The notes under the pieces are model-generated. The model was not told the DNA's origin. It was given only the letters and a program-made list of their open reading frames with translations, and did no database searches. From Monilinia fructicola (Eukaryota > Ascomycota > Leotiomycetes > Helotiales > Sclerotiniaceae): a stretch of DNA of 64,000 nucleotides. The translations under genes and the position numbers were made by a program. The stretch lies in NCBI GenBank assembly GCA_008692225.1, contig VICG01000003.1:3494001-3558000 (forward strand). Direction: 5' to 3'. Shown here piece after piece: positions 5,747 through 47,306 of the stretch (position 1 is its first letter; every line of letters starts with the position of its first letter).

Positions 5747-8384
5747 CTAAGGTCTGACGAGCTACCCTTATTATCTCACCTCAAGTCAATACCCAAAGAT
5801 AGGAGGAGAGTAGCCAACAAGTAATATGTTGGCAAAACTTAACCGAGACTTGACTTTCACTCGATAACACATATCTACTACCTAAACCACAAACCATATT
5901 CTTGGCCAATCATTAACCTTATGATGAATCGTCAGTCATTGTCACAATATTTATTATTCAATATCATGCGTTTTTCACAGGTGGAGAAATGCACAAAGTC
6001 TATATTAACAAGCGTTGGCGTACAGAACAGTTTCTACATAACTCTCGTACATATCCCATTTGGCGTCTCGTCAGATTCTTTACTTTATTTTTGCTAAGGG
6101 GAGAATGGCGAATTTTGATTCTTTAGGATGGGTTGGGGGGCATTTTGGGGTGGGAAGGAGAAGGAGGAAGGGAAGGGGATGTCATAAATGTGGTGGTAAT
6201 ATTCCTTGTATACTATCTCATTTTCCATGTATGGTTTTTGTTCCCGATGCAAGGGGGCGGTGGGCAAGGTCGTGGTGCGTTTTTGTCTTTATGCTATACC
6301 CGCGGCTTGGGGGTTTTGGGAATAGTTGGAAGATATGGGTAGCTGGGTGGAAGTGACTGGGGAAAGCGAGATGAATCGGGAGGAAGTGAGATGAAGAATA
6401 GGGATGATAGATTGGGTGGTAAGTGAAAGGAGAAAAGAGGATGGAGTGATTGAACTGAACTTATGCAGTGATGAGATAAAATAGTTGCGAAAGTCATCTA
6501 AGATGCGTGGGATGACAAGGCTTGGAAAGAGCGTAGTGTGATGATAAGACAATTAAGAGATGAACAATTCCTCAAAAAGGATCAAAAGTTAGCATGATCT
6601 GACCTATATTCATGATATGTTTGTTTTTATGTGATCGTTCCCGTGTCTCCATACCGTGCTGGTATTCAAAGGTAAAATGAATGATTTGTTAGGACGGGAT
6701 ACTGATTGCAGAATCGCCTCACCGGATCTGAACATGGCAATCTTTATTTTCAGATGACATTACAGCAGCTGGAAAGCAGCGTCTCAACCCTTTCTCGGCT
6801 AAGCGAGTAACAAATCCACGAGAGAAGTGTTAGGAGCACATTGCGATTCCCCTCTATACCGTATATCTTATTTTAAAGACTCGCAATGCATACCCTATAT
6901 GAACACATCCTCCCATCCATTCTTCGCCAGTTTCTATGCGGTGAGGGTGGCGTGAAGTAGGTTGGTAGTGCATAGCTGTTTTCGCGTGCTTGTAAGTGAA
7001 TGGTGGGAGGCTGGTCGGGGGGTCGACGTTTGGGAGATGGCAGACGGGAGATGATGGTGTTCGTTTACGAGAAGTCGGTATCATCCACCAGATAGCCTCT
7101 ACCGTAGAGTCTTCTTCGCTACCCGGAGAATCACTACGGTTGAGTTATCGTCCAGAGAAATGTACCCGATGCGTGCTATTTGGAGACGATCGGAAAACGG
7201 CAAGAGCAAAGTCGTTGAGGGGGCAAGAGCTTAGCTCGGCTGTGTGGGCTCGGCTTTCACGGTTGTCGAAGACGGTGCGTTGGCCTTGATGTGTTGTGAT
7301 TAGTTTGTTCCGTTCGTATCTTGCTACTCGAGCAAAGATATCATATAGAAGATACCATTCTCCATCAAGTTCAGTGTAAAAAACACATGACCGAGCAATC
7401 AGAGTCCATAGGAAATACCATAGGCTTACTCCCAACGCAGAGCGTTGCGAGAGGCACCACTGTTGACCCGCCCGAGAATCTGATAGTTCTAAATATCTGG
7501 TTCGTGGCCATCTCGAAAGGTTAGATGAAAAGGCCACCTGAAGATGCTGAAGCGCCACAGAAACCTCATACCGCGCTCCAGATGCAGTAATCTTATACCC
7601 CAACTCTGAACATGAGAATCTTTCATAACGTGATATTCTTGGAGACGTCGACTCTCGAGAAACACGGCACGAGTCAGAAGCCAATACCGTGACGTTGAAA
7701 ATTAAAATTAATTGCACTCCCTCCTTTTCCCCTCAATCATCTTCTACCAAGCAAGCAAGCAAGCAAAAGACGACGTGCTATCGAAACACACATGAATGAA
7801 AGGTGATGGGGGTAAAAGGTGGTGTGATTGGGGTAGGGGGAATAATGCGTTTACTGTTGGATAGGGGAGGAGTAGGTTGCGGATACAGGGAGTGGAGAAT
7901 GTGGCGGAGGGGGAAATGGAAATGGAAGTTTGGGAGAAGGGTCTTGAAGTGTAGTTTTGTGGTGGTTTATCTGTGTTGCCAAAGGAACGTCTGGTACGAA
8001 CGATACCTTGACCACGAAAATGAACGCGAAGCGTCTAATTTATAGGAATTATGCTTTCTTGCTTTGATCCACTCTGTTGAATAGATATGTATACTTGAGT
8101 CTCCTAAAACTACGACCTTTGTTATTCTTTTGTCCTGATTCCATGGTTCCCATAGTTATACATATTCCACCGTGACCTCGCAATACCCATAACACGTATC
8201 TTACAAAACCATCCCACACCATTTCCTTGCAAGTGCATTTTCTCACACATCGATACTTTCATCCTGGCTCAACCCTAGAGAAATAGAACGGAAAAGAAAT
8301 ACAGGTAAACAACCTAGTTGAGCCACCGATGCCAGAAAACATCATACCGCCCAAGACACCTAATCCGAATGAATCCTAACCCAT
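5747..8384. other. Convergent intergenic region (3' flanks of ptaB and hbrB)
   Basis: This gap of 2.6 kb lies between the stops of two convergent genes and has no convincing CDS. A 190-codon open frame on the minus strand (7145-7717) lacks any ATG. G-rich patches occur near 6125-6180 and 7800-7870, and a CAAG tetranucleotide run lies near 7750. Long 3' UTRs or a non-coding RNA are possible, but nothing proves them. Confidence 0.5.
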
Positions 8385-18793: not shown

Positions 18794-19830
18794 TCAACAG
18801 ACTTGGCAATGAAATTGGGTCAAATTCGTATCACCCGCAAACTGAGTATTATCCCGAATAAGAGATTTCCCAAGCACATGTACCTCAATCCAAGATACAG
18901 CAGGTCTTCCACGTGGTTGATTAATCACCGCACGCAATACCCTTCCCCAATCCGATGCACAGCCTCTTGAGAAGAACTGTAATTTCGAGTATAAGGATCG
19001 GTCATAGCTACGCATTGTCAAACTGACTAGCATAAAGCATCCTTGAAGCAATTCGGAGCATTCTTCTGCCGTGCAAATTGATGTGGTGGTGGGGTACCCT
19101 TCCTGCTGCCATCTAACCCACCATAATTTAATGACATTGACGAAATTCTGCATATCAAGCTGAAATCGCTGCTGTTAGTAATCCACTATTGCATATGACT
19201 TCTGCATACCATCCACGGCCTCGTTATTATCATCATTATCAACAAATTCAATTCCCATTCCGTCAAAGCCAGCTTTTCGCCTCCGATAATGAGGTTCAGA
19301 GTATCCAACGAGCAAAAGTTCACGGAATGTAGACTTAGGGTTGATATTTCGTTGTAGCTCATATTCTTGGTCATTTAGCGTGTGAACATATAACTTGAGG
19401 CAATCCGTTAAGGATCCATGGGAGGTCTGCTGTAATGGTAAAGGAGTGTAATTCCGAGCTTCTTGTGCTCCGCGATATTCTTTTATCTAACGCTTGTATT
19501 TCCCTAGAGCCCACATTGAAGTCTATATTGTCCATCATGACTGATGTTCTTTGAACAAGGATGGTGTCGTTTCTCCATTGAATGTAAGTGTCGAAGCAAG
19601 TTGCAAAGTGTCTAAAGGACACGGCTCGGGCTTCTGAATTGACATGAGCTACAGAGGGCAGACAATTACAGTGAGGTGGACAAGAGCATTGCACAACTTT
19701 CCAAGTAATTTCTTTACCGTTGATTAAGGTAGGATTTATCTCGATGTGTCTTCCTCCGGGAAGAGTATATTCACAGATTTGGATAAGCAGTTCGACGGGA
19801 AGACGTGAGAAGACCAATTACTGCTTTCAT
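18794..19830 (-). CDS. 2EXR-domain protein (F-box-like), frame disturbed
   Basis: Near the start the protein reads FSRLPVELLIQICEYTLPGG then RHIEI, the pattern of the fungal 2EXR domain (LPxELRxxIWxxALPxxR). This is a large expanded family without a settled biochemical role. After a one-base shift near 19400 translation continues as KSTFRELLLVGYSEPHYRRR. The TAA at 19175-19177 lies inside a well-formed 50-nt intron candidate (19160-19209: GTATGC donor, TACTAAC branch site, TTTCAG acceptor), though its phase needs one more indel. The last exon runs MQNFVNVIKLWWVRW to HCQVC. The most likely start, ATG at 19828-19830, needs a one-base correction to join the domain. Probably a real gene with sequence errors. 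Confidence 0.6.
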
Positions 19831-20146
19831 GGTACGAGAATCACATGAAGATACCTAGGTGGTTTGAACTCTTGAACATTGAACTGAGGAGTAAGACAAA
19901 TTGAGGGTACCTTTAACCGATTAGGCTGCGGCTGCAGCTGAATTCAGCTGACCCATCTGTGGGCTGATCTCTACCCCTCATTTAACCTCACAACAGTTGG
20001 AACGTCCCATATTTATCATGATATCTTTCAAACTCGTTTCAATCATCTTGATCTTGATTTCAGTGCCTTCATATAAGAGCTCTACGTAGCCAAATGGGCG
20101 TAGGATAATTCTTCTCTGCCGGACACTCTCCTTGATCAAACCCAAC
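19831..20146. promoter_or_regulatory. Shared divergent promoter of two 2EXR genes
   Basis: About 316 bases separate the starts of the minus-strand gene ending at 18794 and the plus-strand gene starting at 20147, so both promoters must overlap here. A GC-rich patch with CAGCTG-type palindromes lies at 19926-19955. Confidence 0.5.
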
Positions 20147-20887
20147 ATGTCAAGCTTTCCACAGTTCACCCTTCTCCCTACCGAGCTGCAACTCCATATC
20201 TGGAATTTTGCACTAGAAGTACAGGAAGGACATATCGTTCCAATTGAAAACTTAAGATATGGACGACCCCGCAAATTCGTGCCGCATGCTTTGTATTTCG
20301 TGAATTGCGATGCGCGGAGAATATATCTAGGGTACCATAAGAAAAACTTGGCCCGTTATTCAAGAATGGGGACAGTGGTCTTCGACCCGAGGATTGATAT
20401 AGTTTTCATGGAAGTAGGTTGGGTTCACCATGTCGAGTTGCTTTTCGCCCAGATCAGAGACAGCGTGGAGAGCCGGATCATGAAAGACGTCCGCAATATC
20501 GCGATTGGTGGGTTTTTCGAAATGAAGGCCAATCATGAAGGGAGACGACCCCGCATCTTTCCGACATCGATGGGAAATACCATAGCGCGGGTTTTACCAT
20601 CACTTGAAACTTTCACCTATGTTCTCGGATTTGATTCTAGATATTCAAAACATAGATCAAGATACAGGGAAAGTTATGGGGTCATCAATAGTGATCAAAT
20701 TTTGTCAAGTCTATTGCAAAAAAACATGATTATGGGACGGGAGAATTCGTACGAGACTATAGTTGAGCGGACACGTGAGGTTTTGCAGGAATATAAGCGC
20801 AGTGAGAATTCCAAATTCAATGTCCCAATGATACAGGCAAAATTTGCTATCCACGGACAAGTCGTCCCGTACGACCGAGGATTTTGA
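20147..20887 (+). CDS. 2EXR-domain protein
   Basis: Intact single-exon frame of 246 residues from ATG at 20147. The N-terminus MSSFPQFTLLPTELQLHIWN fits the 2EXR motif. The remaining sequence has the usual family features: VVFDPRIDIVFMEVGW (the 'xxNPxxDxxxl' strand) and a helical VRNIAIGG block. It is probably a cytosolic or nuclear protein of unknown role. It stands head to head with a second 2EXR gene, which suggests local duplication followed by strong divergence. Confidence 0.75.
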   Translation: MSSFPQFTLLPTELQLHIWNFALEVQEGHIVPIENLRYGRPRKFVPHALYFVNCDARRIYLGYHKKNLARYSRMGTVVFDPRIDIVFMEVGWVHHVELLFAQIRDSVESRIMKDVRNIAIGGFFEMKANHEGRRPRIFPTSMGNTIARVLPSLETFTYVLGFDSRYSKHRSRYRESYGVINSDQILSSLLQKNMIMGRENSYETIVERTREVLQEYKRSENSKFNVPMIQAKFAIHGQVVPYDRGF

Positions 20888-22399: not shown

Positions 22400-23780
22400 A
22401 TGTGGAGCTTGTGTAGGATCAGGATGTATCATTAGTTGTCTGTATAAGTATATGCAAGACACAAAAATCACAAGGCATATGGTGCCATCGAGCACCATCA
22501 ATCGACAAGTTATGATGATTATTGTTTCTTAGTCATGGCCGAATCTACCTAAGAATATTGTGCACTCCGACCAACGAGTGCTTTCACTCACATCTGATCG
22601 AGTGATTGGTAAGCTTCTGAAATGATAGCGTCTTCATAATCAAGTACCAGGTCGTCACTTCGCAGTAACAAAGACGATGATCGAAAGGCTGGGAATCATG
22701 TTATCACATCCATGGTTTGAATTTCTCCGCACGCTTCAGCTCGAAGCAGTGGATTAGGTGATCCATTTTCCACACAGGGTCATGCTTTCATGTGATAATA
22801 CTCCTAGTATCGACAGCTTCTATCCCGTGGACATCAAAGGCAGGCAGGGGAATATTGATCTGCCATTAGACCTATACGTGACCGTTCTCCAACTCCCAAG
22901 CTTAGAAAAAGGTCGGCCCGACCACTTGACATTTGCATCTAAGGTGCCTCTCATATGCAACATACCCAGCTGAACACGGCAATCTAGTCATAGCCGTGAT
23001 ATCAAGAAGCACCCACAAGCGATAGTTTTCGAAGAACTCACCCAAATATCCAAAAAGCTCCAAGCTCTCTTAGGTAATTATTCACCGAGTAAATGCAATC
23101 TTCTAGTTCCTCTCATCTAGCAAATCATGATCCCCCTATGATGGTTAATTTAAATGGAAAATCTTCGTTCGAATTCCTGGTAGCCTCCAGGTAATGACCC
23201 TGGTATAGATTGAGGATTGAGAGTGACTTGTTTCGATGAATCCCGGCATCTCTCTTCTGCTCATGGTTCTGAATGAATAGTACACAATTTCCGAAATTTG
23301 TTGCATATCTCATTATTCACCAAGATTTCCTCATATGATTTCATCATGGCTGTCGACTTTCGTTGCCTATATCATCATTCACGTTTTATCTTTAGTAGAA
23401 TAGGAGGGAGGATGCGGACAAGTAGAGTTCTGGATATCTAAACCTCCTTAGAAACTGCCATTTTATCAGTATGTGAATGGCTTGGAATTTAGTTCATCAT
23501 GTAGCAAGCCATATCTCAAGGATTCAGTTTTCATTATTCTACCCATTCGATCGCTAAATAAAGTTGATCACAGTATTAAAAGGAACCAACTCATACAATC
23601 ATTGCCACATCAATGGCCGTGGCTCAACGCTTCATCGGCCCCTTTGAATACACCAAGGCGACTTCCTTCTCCATCCGGATAAGCAGGACCTACAAAATTA
23701 TCAGAATCAATCATTCGACTTTGGTGAGTACCCTGGAATTACCTTTGGTTGGATGAATGAGCCAACCGGGCCTCATCATA
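22400..23780. other. Convergent intergenic region
   Basis: No supported gene lies between the stops of bL28m (plus) and the UstYa-type gene (minus). Short open frames at 22758-22973 and 23473-23682 lack an ATG in good context or any recognisable motif. Confidence 0.5.
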
Positions 23781-24806
23781 TCAACACTTTCTCTCTTTAC
23801 TCCAATCATCTAGTTTTTTCCAATCAATACATTGATGTATAGTTTGGTTGGTGACTGGCATCAAGCTATCTTCTGACCATTCGTACGTCACTATTCCAAT
23901 GTCTCCGTGGCACATTGCTGCTTGACGGAGAAAATCAAGACAGTGTTCTATTGTTTTCTCGTCAGTTGATTGCTCTTGAAATATGTGTGATTTGACAGTA
24001 CCATTGTGTATACGATTCACTTCTCTCTGCTTCTCGCTAAGATCTGCCCAGTATACCTCAGGGTAGCTATAAGAGTACAGACGTTTCTGGATTCTCATTA
24101 GCCTGTGTCCTCTCCCCAGGCTATGACCTGGCTTACAATACAGTGAAGTTCATGAAAAACGTTGAGAGTTCCAATATATTTGTCACTTCCAGGAATCTTT
24201 ACGCCTGTATCTTCACGACCGAAACGTTGCATTATTTCAGGTTCCAGCTCGATATTATAAGCTACAGGATAGTCGGTCAGACTTCAAATCTGAAAGCAGT
24301 AGGAGTGAGTCCCAGAGTTATATTGCTACGAACCAGTCAAGAGCTCATGCCAGTTTTCATCGATCTCTGGTCGAGGATACCCGGAAAATGGGCCATGATG
24401 TGTGTCGGTTTCATTGTAGGTTTGTGCTTGCCATGTTATCACATTGTAAGCAGGGGCTAAATTCATGTCAGTATACTGTTTCTTTCTCTTCCATCGTCAG
24501 TGTCAGCGTTCTCTTACAATGGATTACATTGGGGCCCTTGAGTGCCTGTGTCCGAAAATGTTTGGCTACAAGAAAGATAGTTGCAATATAGAACAAGAAA
24601 ATCAGACCATTCAACTGAATAATTCTAGAATAACGACTATAGTATGAATCTCTGCGTCGTATATCCTGTATCTCTTTCTCCAAGAGGGTAACATTTGGAG
24701 ATACTGTCTCGTCAGTATCGGATGGCCTTTCTTCTGATGGATTCGGTACGGTTTGGTACTTCTCAAGGCTTTTGGAAGCCCAAGATTGCTGCCAAAAGTG
24801 AGGCAT
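23781..24806 (-). CDS. UstYa-family oxidase/cyclase (DUF3328)
   Basis: UstYa-type proteins install oxidative cross-links, for example on tyrosine, in fungal RiPPs of the dikaritin group and act in other toxin pathways; that is family knowledge. The gene has four exons joined in frame to 280 residues, with introns at 24457-24517, 24262-24333 and 24088-24136. The first has a CTGAC branch site before TTTAG. Domain order is a cytosolic N-terminus, one membrane helix (NGLIFLFYIATIFLVA, about residues 66-81), SPAYNVITWQAQTYNET, then YPRPEIDENWHELL, and the two signature motifs HELHC (in GTLNVFHELHCI) and HCLDFLRQAAMC, ending HQCIDWKKLDDW. Both histidine/cysteine motifs are present, so the enzyme looks functional. 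It is transcribed away from the repeat precursor 2.5 kb to its right. The second intron has a weak donor (GTTCGT). Confidence 0.9.
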
Positions 24807-27269
24807 GATTGAAAGTTCGTTGGAATCTGGATAATGGGAAAACGGTCAATTGTAAAATACCTGGAGAAGACAGAGAATGAGATGATGAAAGAAAGGTAGT
24901 TCTGCGATAATCCACCCCCTACCTCCCCCAAGATAACTAGCAACAAAAACTTAGCTAAAGTGGACGACACCGCATATTGTCTGTAAAAATTGTGTGCTAT
25001 GCCATTTCGGGTTTCCCTCCATTCCAATTGCTGAAATAATAGATGGAGCTCAAAAGACCCTACGCCACCAAAGTCACGATTAGATCGCTTCATCTGCACG
25101 TTATCGGTAGCTATTGGGTCAGCTACGGCTGAAAAGCCTTCAGTGTAATAAGTGGAAGACTCTGTGTAGCGCCCACTAGATACTGATGATTGGCCGTGAG
25201 CAATCATGTAACACTTGCGACGGTCCGGAAAATTTCGGTATTTACTATGGGAAACTTCTACTGGCCTTTTAATTTCCTTCGAGAACTGTCACGCGAACTT
25301 CCTATGATGGTTGGGTGAGCATTGGCATTTTTGAAAGATGCAAATGCCAAGGCCTTGACATGTTGAGAATTATCTTGGCAAGACACCCGAAGACGGTTCA
25401 TCCCAACGTCTCAACCTTAATTGGACATCCGAAAAGAATATCATCATTGAATCTGGAACCCTTTTAAAGTTCACGGCGGATATTGGTGTCCAATAAATGT
25501 TCAACATATATCTTAAGCTCCGAACAGTGCAACATGTTGATGCAGTTTCAACTCGGATGGGCTTGTTTGTTCATAGCACAACATTTTTACTGCGTTCTCA
25601 CCTCAATAAGATGATGTTCTACCCAAGTATTGTTGCAGCTATATCTAGTGCTTACTACTCCATTCTGTGTTATTTAATGACTTATTCACCGCAATATTCA
25701 GCCGCGTTGAATAGCTCTACCACGATGCTACATTGTTGGCCACGAGGCAAGACGCAAGCGCGGCTAAGAAATACCTTTGTGAACCAAAATTTGGTTCTGC
25801 ACTAACTAACGCCCCATGATTGCACGCTGACCGGCAACACCAAGAAATGAAGGATATTGCGCCATTGAGTGCACGAAATAGACGTCTCGTAGACGTACAA
25901 GTACGATCAGTCCACTAGACTCCCCTTGTAAAGGAGCTTCAGATCAAGACAGTCATGTTTGGCAACGTTACCGTGGTGGAGCTTCTTCAAGCCCAGAAGC
26001 AGCTGAGTGAAAAACTTCGATATTATGAATTGCCCAAACGGGGACATGGATATGCAGGAACAATCATTGTCTTCCATCAATCACATGTAGTGAAATGTGG
26101 GGATATTGATGGCACGTTGAAGTATCAAGGTTACATGCATTCAACCTCTGCATATAAATCACCATATATGCTTCTACTCGGCAGCATTTTTCGTCTATGC
26201 TTACTGAAGAGAGTAACTATCCACACAAGATTGTCCAATGTTATGGTAGACTGGTGCCTTGGAGGATTATACAATCCATCTTGTTCTTACCTAGCCGGGT
26301 TGCAAAGATTGAATTTGAGACCTCGAAAAAGGGTGCTTGGTTACCGGAAGGTGAATGGGTTGGCTGAAACTTCTTTCTATTTCATGGAAAGAGGCTCTAG
26401 CCAGCCTGGTCACCCGACTGCCTTGGCTTTATGACGTGCTATCTAAGACATCTCCCAGGCAAAGTTTTAGAGTTCTTGAGTGACGGCGGAAGATATACCA
26501 AGGGGAACATTTTTCCATAGTTTGAACAATGGGTCTAGATGCGAAGGCGCAAGAAGGGAAAGCTCAACAATATTGATCTCAACTCGAAACCAAATACCAC
26601 AGAGTACGAAAACAACCAATGGTTGAAGGAGTCTCCCCGCAAGCCGTCATTGTGTCATCTTAAACATGCAATGACGAACCACAAACCTCAACTGTTTATC
26701 CTCTCCGCCATCGTGCAGTTCATAAACATGCAAATACTTTCTGGCGAAGGTTCTTTCGAGCATTTCAGGGCCAAAGCCATTGATACCTACACCCTGAGAA
26801 GTACAGTTGATGTAAAACCTGGCGTTCGGCCTGGTTCGGAAATGAAATCCAAAAGTTTGATTGAACATGCTTCTAGATATTGTTGTTACTTTGCGATATG
26901 AGGAGAAATGAGTAATATTGAGACAGCGTCTCAAACCAAACGCCTAGACCTCGTATAGACGGCTGAGGAAACCTTATACCCACAGGACTTCTCAAGGGTA
27001 AGAATACCAGCCGTCTCAATATACTCGGCCTATCACTGTTGCAAAAGAACTTTCGGTCCAACCATCTTCATGAAAAGCGCTGGCATCGATCTCCTATTAG
27101 CTTGGAGAATGATCATATAAGAGGAAAGAAAACACCCCCTTCTTCGACTCTTTTATCAACATCAACATCCTTTTCTCTACTTAAATTCACCTCAACAAGT
27201 CCATTGACAATAATCCATTGGCCCAATAATCATAACACTCAAGCTTATCCAACAAAATCATCATTAAAA
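24807..27269. other. Divergent spacer between UstYa gene and RiPP precursor
   Basis: Must hold promoters for both cluster genes. Apart from the uncertain frame at 25955-26434 I see no gene. The longest minus-strand frame (24611-25207) overlaps the UstYa first exon in another frame and is a shadow. Confidence 0.5.
25955..26434 (+). CDS. Hypothetical protein, possibly phosphotransferase-like fragment
   Basis: ATG-initiated open frame of 159 codons, which I do not recognise firmly. Residues about 35-52 (YAGTIIVFHQSHVVKCGD) resemble the nucleotide-binding strand and lysine (VVKxG) at the start of fungal aminoglycoside-phosphotransferase-like proteins. The downstream ExxxLxxF and IPVPxVY motifs are not seen in any frame without stops. 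It may be a decayed kinase-like gene or chance. It lies between the UstYa gene and the precursor. Confidence 0.25.
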   Translation: MFGNVTVVELLQAQKQLSEKLRYYELPKRGHGYAGTIIVFHQSHVVKCGDIDGTLKYQGYMHSTSAYKSPYMLLLGSIFRLCLLKRVTIHTRLSNVMVDWCLGGLYNPSCSYLAGLQRLNLRPRKRVLGYRKVNGLAETSFYFMERGSSQPGHPTALAL

Positions 27270-27803
27270 ATGCATTACTCAACCCATTGTCCTCCCGCTT
27301 CTCGCTGTCTTGGCCACAGCATCTCCAATTGCTCACCCTGCCAAAGACGCTGATACTGCAATAGTCTATCCAGCAGATGCTAGACGTGCTGTTGATGCTG
27401 ATACAGCCATAGTGTATCCCGCTGAAAAGCGTGCCAAGGACGCTGATACAGCCATCGTTTATCCTGCTGAGAAGAGAGCAAAGGATGCAGATACTGCTAT
27501 TGTCTACCCAGCTGAGAAACGAGCGAAAGATGCTGATACCGCTATCGTTTATCCAGCAGAGAAGCGTGCCAAGGATGCGGATACCGCAATAGTATATCCG
27601 GCCGAAAAACGTACTGCCGTCAAAGACGCCGATACGGCTATTCGTGTACCCTGCCGAAAAACGTGCAAAAAGACGCTGATACTGCGATTGTTTATCCAGT
27701 AGAGAAGCGAGCAAAGGATGCGGATACAGCCATCGTGTACCCCGCTGAAAAGCGTACTGCTGCTAAGGATGCCGACACTGCTATCGTCTACCCAGCAAAC
27801 TAG
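27270..27803 (+). CDS. Kex2-processed repeat RiPP precursor (dikaritin-like)
   Basis: Secreted peptide precursor. From ATG 27270, with a one-base slip in the CCC run near 27283, it begins MHYST and then has a hydrophobic signal core (IVLPLLAVLATAS, cut expected after about residue 19). Ten repeats of about 15 residues follow, each with the invariant block DADTAIVYPA, most in the form AKDADTAIVYPAEKR. The KR pairs are sites for the Golgi protease Kex2. Repeat 1 ends DARR, repeats 7 and 10 have the longer leaders TAV and TAA, repeat 8 has V for A (YPVEKR), and repeat 10 ends YPAN then stop with no KR. Codons differ from repeat to repeat while residues stay fixed. Two more one-base insertions (near 27642 and 27668) lie in repeats 7 and 8. 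The only aromatic residue in each repeat is Tyr, the residue usually cross-linked by UstYa enzymes. It lacks the Trp/Cys/GQPC pattern of mating pheromones. About 175 residues. Confidence 0.88.
27340..27800 (+). repeat. Ten tandem coding repeats (unit 45 or 51 nt)
   Basis: Direct tandem array inside the precursor gene. Repeats 2-6, 8 and 9 are 45 nt, and repeats 7 and 10 carry 6 extra nt before the Lys-Asp. Third codon positions vary freely (GCT, GCC, GCA and GCG for Ala; ATA, ATC and ATT for Ile) while the peptide is nearly constant. Confidence 0.9.
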
Positions 27804-29716: not shown

Positions 29717-31162
29717 TTATCTAGAGGTTGCGATAGCTGTCGCGTAATCATGAACATCGTCCTTTTCCAAGACAGACTTTCCGGCTGTCATGATCATACG
29801 CTCTGGAGCTGGCACGCTCAAGTATGGCTTGACTCTGACTCTGTGTGCGGTTCTGAAAACTTTCATTTGCTTGATGATGTTGTTCATTTCGTTTTCGATG
29901 TCATCATCTCCATTCTTCTTGGCTTCATTGCGGAAGCTATACTCAGCGACTGTTTCACGGAATTTGCGTTGTAAGTTTGGCATATAGCGTTGTGTGTTCT
30001 CTTCGTTCAAGTACCTATCGAGTCCCAAGAAAGCATCCATTATCTGCGGCAACAATAGTTGGTTTCCGGATAGACCATCATATTCAGTGTATTCTCCAGT
30101 GACCGGGTCGATATCACCAGCAGCCCATCCTTGAAATCCTTGTGCATAGTGCATCCAGACTTTTCTGGAGATCTTGGATTCGTGCATGGTTTCGTAGTAT
30201 GTCTTCAAAGGTGTGCGCAACTCCCTGTTAATTTCTCTCAGTGATTGCAAAGCACCAGTGCGGTCGCCATTAGAGTATTGTTGGATAGCTTTAGTGACCA
30301 TATGATAAATTGGGAGAGCTTCCTTTTCGATATGAGGGAAAACATGGCCAAAGTGGTATTCGGCAGATTGGATGAGCTCGTCCATACCGGGGTTTATTGG
30401 ATAAACTATTTGATCTCTTTCATCGAAGTTGCAGAGATAGTTACTTGCAACGTTACCACCCTGAGATGTAACTCCGTATCTTCTCTTGAGGTATGGCCAC
30501 GCTAGTTCGAGACAGGCAGGGAAATCGATGACTCTTTCTTCTTGGGCGAGTTTGACTATGGGTATTGTTCCCCATCTTTGTTGTGTTAAAAAGAAATCCA
30601 TTGTTCTATGACTGAGAATCAAAGGCACTTACCGGAAGGCATGTCTAGACAATGCAATGCAGGCGAAGAAACCATTCCAAGCTGCACGGGATAGAACACT
30701 CTCATCAATTTCTGCTGCGTCTAAAAGGGCTTTTACTTCTTCCATATTGACTTGATCGTTGTAGAGTATTCTCATCTGTACACGGAAGTCCAAGCACCGT
30801 TGAAAGTTCTTTGCATTGTCGTCGCTAAGCTCTGCAATTGAGAGAGCGGGTGCCATTGCTTGATAAATGTCGTGGAATGGTCGAAGGACTTCTGGCCAAG
30901 CATTGCCATACACAGTTGTAGGAGGCCATGTGCCAGCTCCATCGATCTCAATTAATTCTCGAAGAGAGTTCTGGGCGGCATGAGGCGCGTAGATATCGGT
31001 CTTTTCAAATGCATATGCAGCTCCAGATGGCCCTTTTTGTTGACTTGATCTTCCAAGAATAGTTTTGCGGTACAGGTTTAGGAGAAGCCCAAATATGGCT
31101 ACAAAGAACAAGTAAAGGAGAGAAAGTTGAGTGTTTGCGATGGCCAAATCAAAGCCGGTCAT
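29717..31162 (-). CDS. Membrane-anchored indoleamine 2,3-dioxygenase-like heme protein
   Basis: Two exons (intron 30576-30632) join in frame to 462 residues. A membrane helix comes first (residues about 9-30, SLLYLFFVAIFGLLLNLY), unlike ordinary soluble IDO. The rest follows IDO order by eye: GGNVASNYLCNFD, FPHIEKEALPIYHMV, YAQGFQGW, then YDGLSGNQLLLPQIMDAFLG where IDO has GGSAxQSSxxxxxDxxLG, YMPNLQRKFRE for YMPxxHRxFL, and FRTAHRVRVKPYL for the proximal heme block LRxxHxxxVxxYI. His421 would be the heme ligand. The Arg that binds the tryptophan carboxylate in human IDO1 (Arg231) appears replaced in the YAQGFQGW block, so tryptophan may not be the substrate. Both exons are open. Its position between precursor and P450 suggests a tailoring role; that is inference. 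Confidence 0.7.
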
Positions 31163-33560: not shown

Positions 33561-35326
33561 ATGGAAGCTCTAAATGGAACTACGAAAGTGGTGGAAATAG
33601 AATCACCATTTGCTAGATTCAGCCACTACTTGACCGGGTCTACGCTGGCGAGTGGCCTTGTGGCTGCTATCCTGCTACCATTTGTATATCAAATCATTTA
33701 CTATCGATTTTTTCATCCCCTTAAAGAATTTGATGGCCCTTTTTGGGGGTCAGTGACCAGACTTTGGCACACTTATCAGAATATCAGGGGTATTGAGTTG
33801 GAGACTTACGACCGCCTACTTAAGGAAAAGAACAGTATGTATAAGTCCTTGAAATAAGGTTCTCTTATGCTAATATAATTGAAGCAAATATTTTACGCAT
33901 CTCTCCAACTGAGCTTTTGATTCCTTCGGCCCTACACCTACCACAAATTTACCATCGTCAAGCTGTTAAGACAAAATGGTATGTGACTGGTGCACTTGGA
34001 CCTGGAGAGTCAGTCTTCAATATGCAACCGCATTCTCATCACGCTCACTTCCGTCGTTTAATCGCTGGGCCATACTCCATGTCTAAGATGGTAAAGAATG
34101 AGCCTCTCATTGACGATATCATTATCGCATGGATCAGAAAATTGAATGATATGTTTGCTCAGCAAAACAAGGCCTTTGATATGTCGAGATGGGCAACCTT
34201 TGCCGCGTTCGATGTAATCAGTCTCGTTGGGTTTGGAGAAGCTTTCGGATTTGTTGATACTGCTACTGATGTTGATGACTTGATTGAAGAGCTTCACAAG
34301 GGCTTCTTCTACTTTGGCATTGTTGGTAGAATGTATCCCTTTGTTGAGTTCATCAAGAAGACTTGGTTTGGTCGATTCCTTGTCTCCAACGAAAAAGACA
34401 AGGGAGGGATGGGCTTCTTGATCAGATGGACAAACAGAATCATGAAGGCTAGACAGAAAGAGCTCGCCGAAGGAAAGGATCATGGTAGAGTCGATCTTTT
34501 ACAATCGTATGGTATTCCCCCTTGCATGTGTCGACAAAGCTAACAAACAAGATTCTATGAGGCCCGGGATGCCCAAGGCCAACCGCTCACCGAAGAACAT
34601 ATCCGAGCCGAATGCATGCTTTTGTTCACAGCTGGTGCAGATACTACTGGAACAACCATGGGAGCAATGATGGCGTATCTTCTTTCTAACCCAACCGTCT
34701 ACGCAAAAATGGTGGCCGAAATTGATGCTGCTTTCGAGAATGGCGTTTTATCTACTCCAGTTCCAGCTGCTGCAGAAGTTTCCAAGAATTGCCCATATTA
34801 CGTTGCCTGTGTCAAAGAATCTCTCCGCTTGTGCCCTTCAGCCCCTAACATATTCCCTCGTCTCGTTCAAGCTGACCATGCTCCTCTTGTAATTGATGGT
34901 AAGACGATCCCAGTCGGTACTTGAAGTTACAAGTACTGCATACATGGCGAACCGGGATCCAGCTGTTTATGGTAAGGATGCGGAAGAATTCAGACCAGAG
35001 AGGTGGTTAGAAAATAATGGAGAAGCTGGAAAAGTTTTTGATAAATATCTTGCTACATTCGGATATGGTACTCGCAGCTGTTTGGGCAAGGACCTTGCAA
35101 TGATTGAATTGATGAAAACCCCTTTGATGGTAAGTGATTCTGCTGCTGGTCACCTGTCTGGGCATTCGTTAATAATCAGCAGTTTTTCCGAGCTTTTAAC
35201 CCACGCATGTGCCTCCCAAGCAAGGAAACCCCATCCCCCAAACGTATTCTAGTCGGTGCTATGTTCTATTGGGATGATATTTGGATGAAGCTTGAGAAGA
35301 GAAACATTGCTGGGTTTTCATGGTGA
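33561..35326 (+). CDS. Cytochrome P450 monooxygenase
   Basis: Heme-thiolate oxygenase of the fungal microsomal type. ATG 33561 starts MEALNGTTKVVEIESP. A membrane anchor follows (LASGLVAAILLPFVYQIIYY, about residues 31-50), then FFHPLKEFDGPFW, the I-helix motif LFTAGADTTGTTM, the ExxR motif KESLRLCPSAPNIFPR, the PERW region EEFRPERWLENNG and the heme loop FGYGTRSCLGK with its Cys ligand. Introns are 33835-33884, 34507-34551 and about 35130-35182. The last exon ends in WDDIWMKLEKRN. One extra T near 34922 breaks the frame after IPVGT, and translation resumes at EVTSTAYMANRDP, so it is probably a sequence error. About 538 residues. Its neighbours make it a candidate tailoring enzyme for the repeat peptide; the reaction cannot be told from sequence. 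Confidence 0.93.
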
Positions 35327-45409: not shown

Positions 45410-47306
45410 CGGGTAGGGGTGATGATGGTGGGGCTGATGATTGAAAACGGTGGGGTTATGTACGTAGTGTTGGCTAAGGGAACCGGAATGCATTGAACTA
45501 TTACATCTACAGTAATGTTGATGTTCATATATATTTCAATGCACAGCAAGGATGTTGAGCCATGAACTAAAATGTAATTACCTAGTATTGTAATTAGCTG
45601 TAGACGAGAAAGGGGTCGCTTCAGGTTTGCAAGCGGACTCGAAAATGTCTTCACCCGCTCCAAACCACAAATCTTTTTATACCAGCTATCCATCAATTCT
45701 CATGATCAATCGAAATATAATAAGTGTACCACTAAATCTGACACCAATCTAAGCATTAGCCCTACCAATATATTATGCAAACAACCTTAGAAATAGAAGG
45801 ACTAGATTCTGATCATAAGAGAGCCAGCATAGTTTCATTCTACCTATTGTCTGCTTGAATGCCGCAAATAAAAAAATATCTGATCTAATGAGACTATCTT
45901 ATAATGGGAATCTTCAAATCCTTTCACATTCACCATGTTCCCCAACTCTCTTTCTCCAACCGCCCTGCTCCTCTCTTCGTCGATACCTCTTACTTTTGTT
46001 TTTGCTAAGATTGCTTTCGGTCTAGGCTTACCTGTTAAAAAGATGATATTGAGTAGAACTTGTGCAAAGACGGGTTATGTATAACCTTTGGCAAATATGC
46101 CCTTGTACCCATCTTCAGTCCTTAGTCTCTCGAGCGCTTTCTCATTCTACGTTTCGTTCCCCGCTCTTCTTCTTCTTCTTCTTCTTCTTCTTCTTCTTCT
46201 TCTTCTTCTTCTTCTTCTTCTTCTTCTTCTTCTTCTTCTTCTTCTTCTTCTTCTTCTTCTTCTTCTTCTTCTTCGGGTTCTTGTGGCGGTTATCACGGCT
46301 TTCTGTCTGGTGCGGTATAGCCTCCGTCTGCAGTTTGTGCTTCGGTATCCTTCTTGCTATTATGACCGAGCCATCATGTCATCACGGCACTCCGTTTTCC
46401 ATCTTCCTTTTTTCCTCCTTCCCTCCCTTCCATGACACATTTGCAATCCCACAACTTTTCATCAGCTCCGATTCGTCACAAACCGCGAATCAGGTTCGGG
46501 CTCTGGTATATTTATCACCCAAGGAGTAAAGATCCGGAATCCTTTCCCCTTTTTATACACTTCGTTGGCTGGAGGTAACTAACTAACTTGAATTGTCATT
46601 TTGATCTTTGATCCTTGGAGTATCTCACCTTCATATGGGTACTGATACCACGGCAAGAAAATTCATACCGAAGTCTTTGAGAAAAAAGAACAAAAAAAGA
46701 ATCGCCATGTAAATCCCAACGTCAAAATCCAGAAATCAAATTTCGTAAACATGCATGATCCGCACGCCAAAATCAAAATCAAAATCAAAATCAAAACACG
46801 TAATTGGAAAAGGTTTTCATGAAATTCCGTACGTATCTCCCATCCATCGCACATATTACAAGAAAGCCCGCAAGCCAACCAGCCAGCAAGTAGGCAAGCG
46901 TGCAAGTAATGAAAAGTCCACCCTGAAAACCCCCAAGATTCGACATGTTTCCAGAAGATCGTCCAGCTCATGGAAGAACATATATCATCTCATCTCCTCA
47001 TGCGTATGAACAAAATGGAAAATAAACTACAAATATTACAAACAATGAGCTCCTTTATCCCCAAACTCCTGGCTGTATGTATGCATGGCTGTATACCACA
47101 ATCCTTTGAGCCCGCAAATATCGCTGATGCAGGATGAACGAGATGAATGATCAGGTCTGGAGATCATCGGGTATGTATGGTATGGTCCGCTCGCCCTCCG
47201 TGCTTTCTAATCAATTTATCCACGCATTTTTATGTACTCTTGTTTTTGAATCCTCTCTCAGTTCCACACCCACCGAATCTTCCATCAATGCGTGCGGGGC
47301 ATCTAC
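45410..47306. other. Convergent intergenic region with long CTT tract
   Basis: Lies between the stops of the lipase (plus) and the bestrophin-like gene (minus). It holds the (CTT)n tract listed separately and an AAAATC hexamer repeat near 46770-46795. No gene is supported. Confidence 0.6.
46166..46274 (+). repeat. (CTT)n microsatellite, about 36 units
   Basis: Uninterrupted CTT/TTC/TCT triplets over about 109 bases. Open frames of poly-Phe or poly-Leu across it are artefacts. A pure homopurine-homopyrimidine tract of this length can form triplex (H-DNA) and is prone to length change. Confidence 0.97.

What the first reader, a model, noticed from the sequence alone, without database searches (positions are those of the whole stretch)
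27270..27803. Uncharacterised Kex2-type repeat precursor with ten DADTAIVYPA cores
Seen: a signal peptide followed by ten units separated by KR/RR, each containing the identical block DADTAIVYPA around a single Tyr. Established: fungal dikaritins (ustiloxin, phomopsin, asperipin-2a) derive from precursors of this design that are cut by Kex2 and cross-linked by UstYa proteins. Inference: the product is a tyrosine-linked cyclic peptide from the AIVYP region. This core differs from the ustiloxin (YAIG), phomopsin (YVIPID) and asperipin (FYYTGY) cores, so the compound may be new.
Basis: partly seen in the sequence, partly recalled or inferred. Interest (0 to 1): 0.9.

Follow-up and report, generated by a model that had tools for sequence, protein, structure and literature searches.

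The report
Fungal repeat precursor beside UstYa enzyme
A fungus, most likely the fruit brown-rot agent Monilinia fructicola, carries a gene for what looks like a secreted protein made of about ten near-identical short peptides that can be cut apart at basic residues, lying beside a gene of the kind that cross-links such peptides into rings; it is probably an unstudied member of a known class of fungal cyclic peptides, and no product has been seen.

Summary
At 27268-27803 (+) lie ten units; eight KR/RR separators are readable. Eight cores are exactly DADTAIVYPA, one is DADTAIVYPV, and unit 7 is cut by a frame break. The frame is broken near the start codon and twice near 27.65 kb, so no single ORF spans the gene; a relative (P0001) keeps an open frame with five exact cores. 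The nine uninterrupted cores all differ in DNA, almost only synonymously.

With 18 UstYa loci found in the genome, such nearness to a given point has a chance of about 0.3%. None of 13 tyrosinase matches lies on this contig.

Best reading: a single-UstYa, dikaritin-like RiPP locus. The ring is inference. Ile precedes Tyr, the reverse of ustiloxin and phomopsin, as described for epichloecyclins. New member of a known kind.

The parts
27268..27702 (+). Stop-to-stop repeat frame: hydrophobic signal-like stretch (IVLPLLAVLATA), then units 1-6 (exact DADTAIVYPA cores) and the start of unit 7; separators RR (one) and KR (five)
27663..27803 (+). Second repeat piece in another frame: units 8 (DADTAIVYPV), 9 and 10 (exact), ending in a stop
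27270..27272 (+). Probable start codon; not in the frame of the repeats in this assembly (frame break shortly downstream, left as it is). Same context as the start of P0001 (SLKMHY)
27640..27670 (+). Region around unit 7 with two frame breaks (described only)
23610..24806 (-). UstYa-family (PF11807, formerly DUF3328) gene, head to head with the precursor. Exons 24806-24518, 24456-24334, 24261-24137, 24086-24002, a fifth from 23947 in which the frame is broken near 23.79 kb relative to the M. laxa protein (not mended), and a last exon ending at the stop at 23610. Hydrophobic N-terminal stretch (by eye); motifs HELHC and HNEHC...CHGD. Pfam matches for two of three pieces scanned; the N-terminal piece 24471-24845 had none
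29717..31162 (-). Indoleamine-2,3-dioxygenase-like gene (PF01231, distant), neighbour; limits by eye; role in a cluster not shown
33561..35326 (+). Cytochrome P450 gene (PF00067), neighbour; limits by eye; role in a cluster not shown

Best explanation
The locus is a small ribosomal-peptide (RiPP) locus of dikaritin type in a Sclerotiniaceae fungus, most likely Monilinia fructicola. The precursor enters the secretory pathway by its N-terminal hydrophobic stretch. A membrane-anchored UstYa-type oxidase, encoded head to head with it, cross-links the Tyr of each AIVYP core, most simply to the Ile two residues before it. Kex2 cuts after KR/RR to free about ten copies of one peptide per precursor, and trimming enzymes take off the basic ends. 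Shown by sequence: repeats, dibasic sites, Tyr in nine of nine uninterrupted cores, adjacent UstYa gene with both HxxHC motifs, the same core in one relative and a close enzyme relative in M. laxa. Inferred: secretion, membrane anchoring, cutting, cross-linking, the partner residue, and any part for the neighbouring P450 and IDO-like genes. The frame breaks are more likely assembly errors than decay, but this is not shown.
For: Repeats with KR/RR; nine DNA-distinct cores, nearly all differences synonymous (pS 0.826, pN 0.010); relative P0001 with an open frame, five exact cores, one RR and three KR; PF11807 match E 2.1e-19 for the piece 23784-24149 and 7.5e-6 for 24101-24283; M. laxa relative of the enzyme at 85% identity over 100%; second HxxHC motif invariant and first nearly so in 20 aligned homologues, of 26 found; 18 UstYa loci found in 44 Mb, so about 0.3% chance that a given point has one within 3.5 kb; in the same genome 3 of 17 other fetched UstYa neighbourhoods (two overlap) also hold KR-separated repeats, 1.4-2.3 kb from a UstYa hit. 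Literature: 65.6% of repeats in UstYa-linked KEPs carry Tyr against 38.2% in unlinked ones (PMC7329392, passages).
Against: Frame broken at three places in the precursor and one in the UstYa gene in this assembly. None of 13 tyrosinase matches in the genome lies on this contig, and only one UstYa locus does. Only one convincing relative of the precursor came out of two protein searches, the second of which scored a capped set of 7997 candidates. 14 of 17 other UstYa neighbourhoods showed no repeat precursor by my scan, and no random-region control was obtained. No signal-peptide or membrane-topology program was run.
Confidence: 0.68

Rival explanations
1. A Kex2-processed repeat protein releasing unmodified linear peptides (signal or wall-acting); the nearby UstYa gene acts on something else.
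For: Most KEPs in the survey (6120 of 7878) have no UstYa-type gene among the 15 closest genes (PMC7329392 passage). No tyrosinase match on the contig. UstYa family members also do other reactions (PMC12048977 passages).
Against: A UstYa gene within about 2.5 kb in divergent arrangement is unlikely by chance (about 0.3%); Tyr is in nine of nine uninterrupted cores; three other repeat-UstYa pairs in this genome.
Confidence: 0.2
2. A decaying pseudogene: the precursor, and perhaps the enzyme gene, has lost its frame in this strain.
For: Three frame breaks within about 530 bases and one in the UstYa gene; the neighbouring P450, GH15, L28 and IDO-like genes look open by eye apart from introns.
Against: Cores otherwise keep their amino acids while synonymous sites are near saturation; open frame in P0001 and in the M. 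laxa enzyme; another repeat array of the same assembly (L016) also seems, by eye, to change frame near its end, which fits sequence errors in repeats.
Confidence: 0.1
3. The peptide is an alpha-type mating pheromone precursor.
For: Same precursor design (signal, repeats, KR).
Against: The core has no Cys or Trp. Monilinia is already listed with a separate KEP type, G-2, annotated mostly as fungal pheromone (PMC7329392 Table 2), and almost all pheromone KEPs lack nearby UstYa genes (abstract passage). A recalled pheromone pattern gave 0 matches in the genome, so I did not find that separate gene here; this is uninformative.
Confidence: 0.02

Closest known systems
Asperipin-2a (Aspergillus; dikaritin with one UstY-type gene)
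   Same: Repeat precursor with a single UstYa-family gene; no tyrosinase in the description (passages of PMC7329392 and PMC12048977)
   Different: Bicyclic through two linkages from Tyr side chains (PMC9233826 passage); one Tyr per core here. Its core is taken from the finding, not compared by a call.
Ustiloxins / phomopsins
   Same: Kex2 repeat precursor, Tyr and Ile in the core, UstYa-family enzymes
   Different: Core order Y-x-I (YAIG, YVIG, YVIP) against I-V-Y here; those clusters need a tyrosinase and have 2 and 5 UstYa genes; here no tyrosinase match on the contig and one UstYa locus
Epichloecyclins (gigA)
   Same: Multicore precursor, likely Kex2 processed, Ile-Tyr link with the Ile N-terminal to the Tyr (PMC9233826 passage)
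   Different: gigA was not fetched or compared; only the residue order was compared, from text
Venturia inaequalis dikaritin-type clusters (PMC9632046)
   Same: Found by the same rule: repeat precursor with signal peptide close to a DUF3328 gene in a fruit pathogen (passages)
   Different: Sequences not compared

Membership tests
Kex2-processed repeat proteins (KEPs) | Several repeats separated by Kex2 (KR/RR) sites | tested here: met
   Ten units; eight dibasic sites in the two pieces
Kex2-processed repeat proteins (KEPs) | N-terminal signal peptide in the same frame | tested here: inconclusive
   Hydrophobic stretch IVLPLLAVLATA present (mean hydropathy 2.6) but the ATG lies in another frame here; in frame in P0001. 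No signal-peptide program run
Dikaritins, class-defining enzyme version (as stated in PMC12048977) | UstYa/DUF3328 gene close to the precursor | tested here: met
Dikaritins, class-defining enzyme version (as stated in PMC12048977) | Two HxxHC motifs in the UstYa protein | tested here: met
   HELHC; HNEHC across intron 4, as in M. laxa P0002
Dikaritins, older five-gene version (Ding et al., as told in PMC12048977) | Tyrosinase in the cluster | tested here: not met
   0 of 13 PF00264 matches lie on contig C3
Dikaritins, older five-gene version (Ding et al., as told in PMC12048977) | Multiple DUF3328 genes | tested here: not met
   One UstYa locus on contig C3; the other 17 found are on other contigs
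Dikaritins, older five-gene version (Ding et al., as told in PMC12048977) | Methyltransferase, transporter or peptidase in the cluster | tested here: inconclusive
   None among 30 ORF pieces scanned with Pfam, 28 of them from 18-38 kb, where one search lists 101 ORFs of 60 aa or more
Dikaritins | Side-chain cross-linked cyclic product | not testable with these tools
   Needs mass spectrometry
Epichloecyclins | gigA-type precursor and Ile-Tyr ring | not tested
   No gigA sequence fetched; only the residue order was compared with text

The most novel reading that the evidence does not exclude
A single UstYa oxidase, without tyrosinase, closes an Ile-x-Tyr ring in the reverse order of ustiloxin and phomopsin (I-V-Y instead of Y-x-I), giving a brown-rot fungus a new secreted cyclic peptide at up to ten copies per precursor, possibly further tailored by the neighbouring P450 and IDO-like haem enzymes.
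Probability: 0.25. Interest if true: 0.6.

Novelty: new member of a known kind. Interest (0 to 1): 0.4.

Why it matters
It names a concrete precursor-enzyme pair, and masses to look for, in what appears to be a damaging fruit pathogen. My paper searches listed no report of such a peptide locus in Monilinia among the rows shown; one Monilinia transcriptome paper reports a DUF3328 transcript but, in the passages seen, no precursor (PMC5987419). It also offers a minimal one-enzyme system with a reversed Ile/Tyr order that could show how UstYa enzymes choose the residues they join. Many such pairs are already known from genome surveys, which limits the surprise.

Tried and rejected
Precursor relatives: two protein searches gave one convincing relative, P0001 (193 candidates; capped at 7997 candidates). 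P0028 (E 3.3e-4) and P0029 (E 0.055) were rejected as chance or compositional matches because both carry PF01872. tblastn against phages gave nothing. PDB searches with the M. laxa UstYa (E up to 1) and with one IDO-like piece (E up to 0.1) found no match. A recalled pheromone pattern found no match and says nothing. PF01909 and PF13492 matches of the repeat piece are below cut-off with no stretch passing and were rejected. The spliced UstYa model kept an 18-residue insert that the M. laxa protein shows to be an intron; the parts table uses the corrected exons. A repeat call in L024 (DAQA, 595 aa ORF) was judged by eye, on the 400 residues printed, not to be a KEP.

The IDO-like and P450 genes were considered as cluster members, with no evidence either way.

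Full report
What is there. The plus strand from 27268 to 27803 holds ten repeat units. The stop-to-stop frame 27268-27702 reads a hydrophobic stretch, then six units with exact DADTAIVYPA cores and the start of a seventh. A second frame, 27663-27803, reads three more units and a stop. Eight of ten cores are exact, one ends in Val, and unit 7 is interrupted. One RR and seven KR are readable in the two pieces, eight of the nine separators expected. TRF finds the array independently.

The frame. The ATG at 27270 is not in the frame of the repeats, and the frame changes twice around 27.64-27.67 kb. I describe these breaks and have not mended them. A relative, P0001 (from a 1000-base contig), has an open frame with the same start context, signal-like stretch, five exact cores and one RR plus three KR. 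The nine uninterrupted cores of the window are nine different DNA sequences; pairwise differences are nearly all synonymous (pS 0.826, 228.0/276.0; pN 0.010, 8.0/804.0; 36 pairs; unit 7 left out; copies picked by motif, which lowers pN). This points to long selection on the amino-acid sequence. Whether the breaks are assembly errors or recent decay is open. Another repeat array in the same assembly (L016) also seems to change frame near its end (judged by eye), which favours errors; four unbroken-looking neighbour genes speak against a uniform error rate (by eye).

Whose genome. The held genome has 44,028,109 bases in 20 contigs and its contig C7 is 2,592,823 bases. The abstract of PMC6795239 gives 20 scaffolds, 44.05 Mb and N50 2,592 kb for Monilinia fructicola Mfrc123. 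The best relative of the UstYa gene is from M. laxa, 85% identical. M. fructicola is thus the likely source; this is inference.

The neighbour that matters. A PF11807 (UstYa) gene lies on the minus strand, 23610-24806, so that it and the precursor point away from each other across about 2.5 kb. Two of three pieces scanned match the family (E 2.1e-19 and 7.5e-6); the N-terminal piece does not. It has an N-terminal hydrophobic stretch (by eye) and both HxxHC motifs: HELHC, and HNEHC formed across an intron that the M. laxa protein shows. In 20 aligned homologues (of 26 found) the second motif's His, His and Cys are invariant and the first motif's residues nearly so. Near 23.79 kb the frame differs from the M. 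laxa protein. The genome search found 18 UstYa loci (30 exon hits merged within 3 kb; such counts are lower bounds), so the chance that a given point has one within 3.5 kb is about 0.3%.

A genome-wide pattern. Of 17 other UstYa neighbourhoods fetched (10 kb each, two overlapping), 3 hold KR-separated repeats: L016 (LLYGYGQEKR units), L018 (DDVVKNAWSAKR units) and L020 (PWDEKRWDEKR units), at 1.7, 1.4 and 2.3 kb from the nearest UstYa hit. In L016 and L020 the pair is head to head; in L018 there are UstYa hits on both strands. The other 14 showed none by this scan.

Other neighbours. An IDO-like gene (PF01231, E 5.8e-11 for one piece, no match for the other), a P450 and a GH15 glucoamylase lie downstream; an L28 ribosomal protein gene and two 2EXR genes lie on the other side. 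Tyrosinase (PF00264) has 13 matches in the genome, none on contig C3. IDO has 10 matches, one on C3.

How it most likely works. Secretion, cross-linking of the Tyr by the UstYa-type oxidase, cutting by Kex2, trimming. The design follows known dikaritins; a single UstYa gene without tyrosinase resembles asperipin-2a (PMC7329392 and PMC12048977 passages). In the core the Ile stands two residues before the Tyr, the reverse of YAIG/YVIP, and in the order described for epichloecyclins (PMC9233826 passage). That the Ile is the partner is inference.

Known or new. The kind is known: one survey found 7878 KEPs, 1758 of them with a UstYa-type gene among the 15 nearest genes (PMC7329392, passages and the whole of section 6). 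In its Table 2 Monilinia appears only under the pheromone type G-2. The core string is in no held paper. Searches pairing Monilinia with RiPP, and with dikaritin, ustiloxin or UstYa, listed no paper on such a locus among the rows shown (10 of 35 and 15 of 31). PMC5987419 reports one DUF3328 transcript in Monilinia; PMC6941272 reports four pairs of adjacent DUF3328 genes and a possible RiPP cluster in Sclerotinia sclerotiorum. These, and PMC6339444, PMC8959702 and PMC9632046, were seen in passages only. Supplementary tables could not be opened. I file it as a new member of a known kind, with the ring unproven.

Noticed in passing
L016:7091-7732 (G000:C14:222090-222731, +): Repeat precursor with eight chained LLYG-bearing units (LLYGYGQEKRSEAETPAP type) 1.7 kb from a UstYa hit; frame seems to change near its end.
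   Followed up: partly
L018:7068-7262 (G000:C6:545567-545761, +): KR-separated repeats DDVVKNAWSAKR, with Trp and no Tyr, 1.4 kb from a UstYa hit; UstYa hits on both strands nearby.
   Followed up: partly
L020:2095-2511 (G000:C1:2437794-2438210, -): KR-rich Trp repeats (EAAPWDEKRWDEKR) head to head with a UstYa hit 2.3 kb away.
   Followed up: partly
window 29717-31162 (-): Divergent IDO-like gene (PF01231) with a probable intron near 30.6 kb; one piece has no PDB sequence relative at E 0.1. Other IDO matches in the genome: much stronger ones on C6 and C14 and a weaker pair at C14:603-604 kb.
   Followed up: partly
window 46165-46274: TCT repeat, 36.7 copies at 100% match.
   Followed up: no
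window 19371-20884: Two 2EXR-family matches (PF20150), on opposite strands.
   Followed up: no
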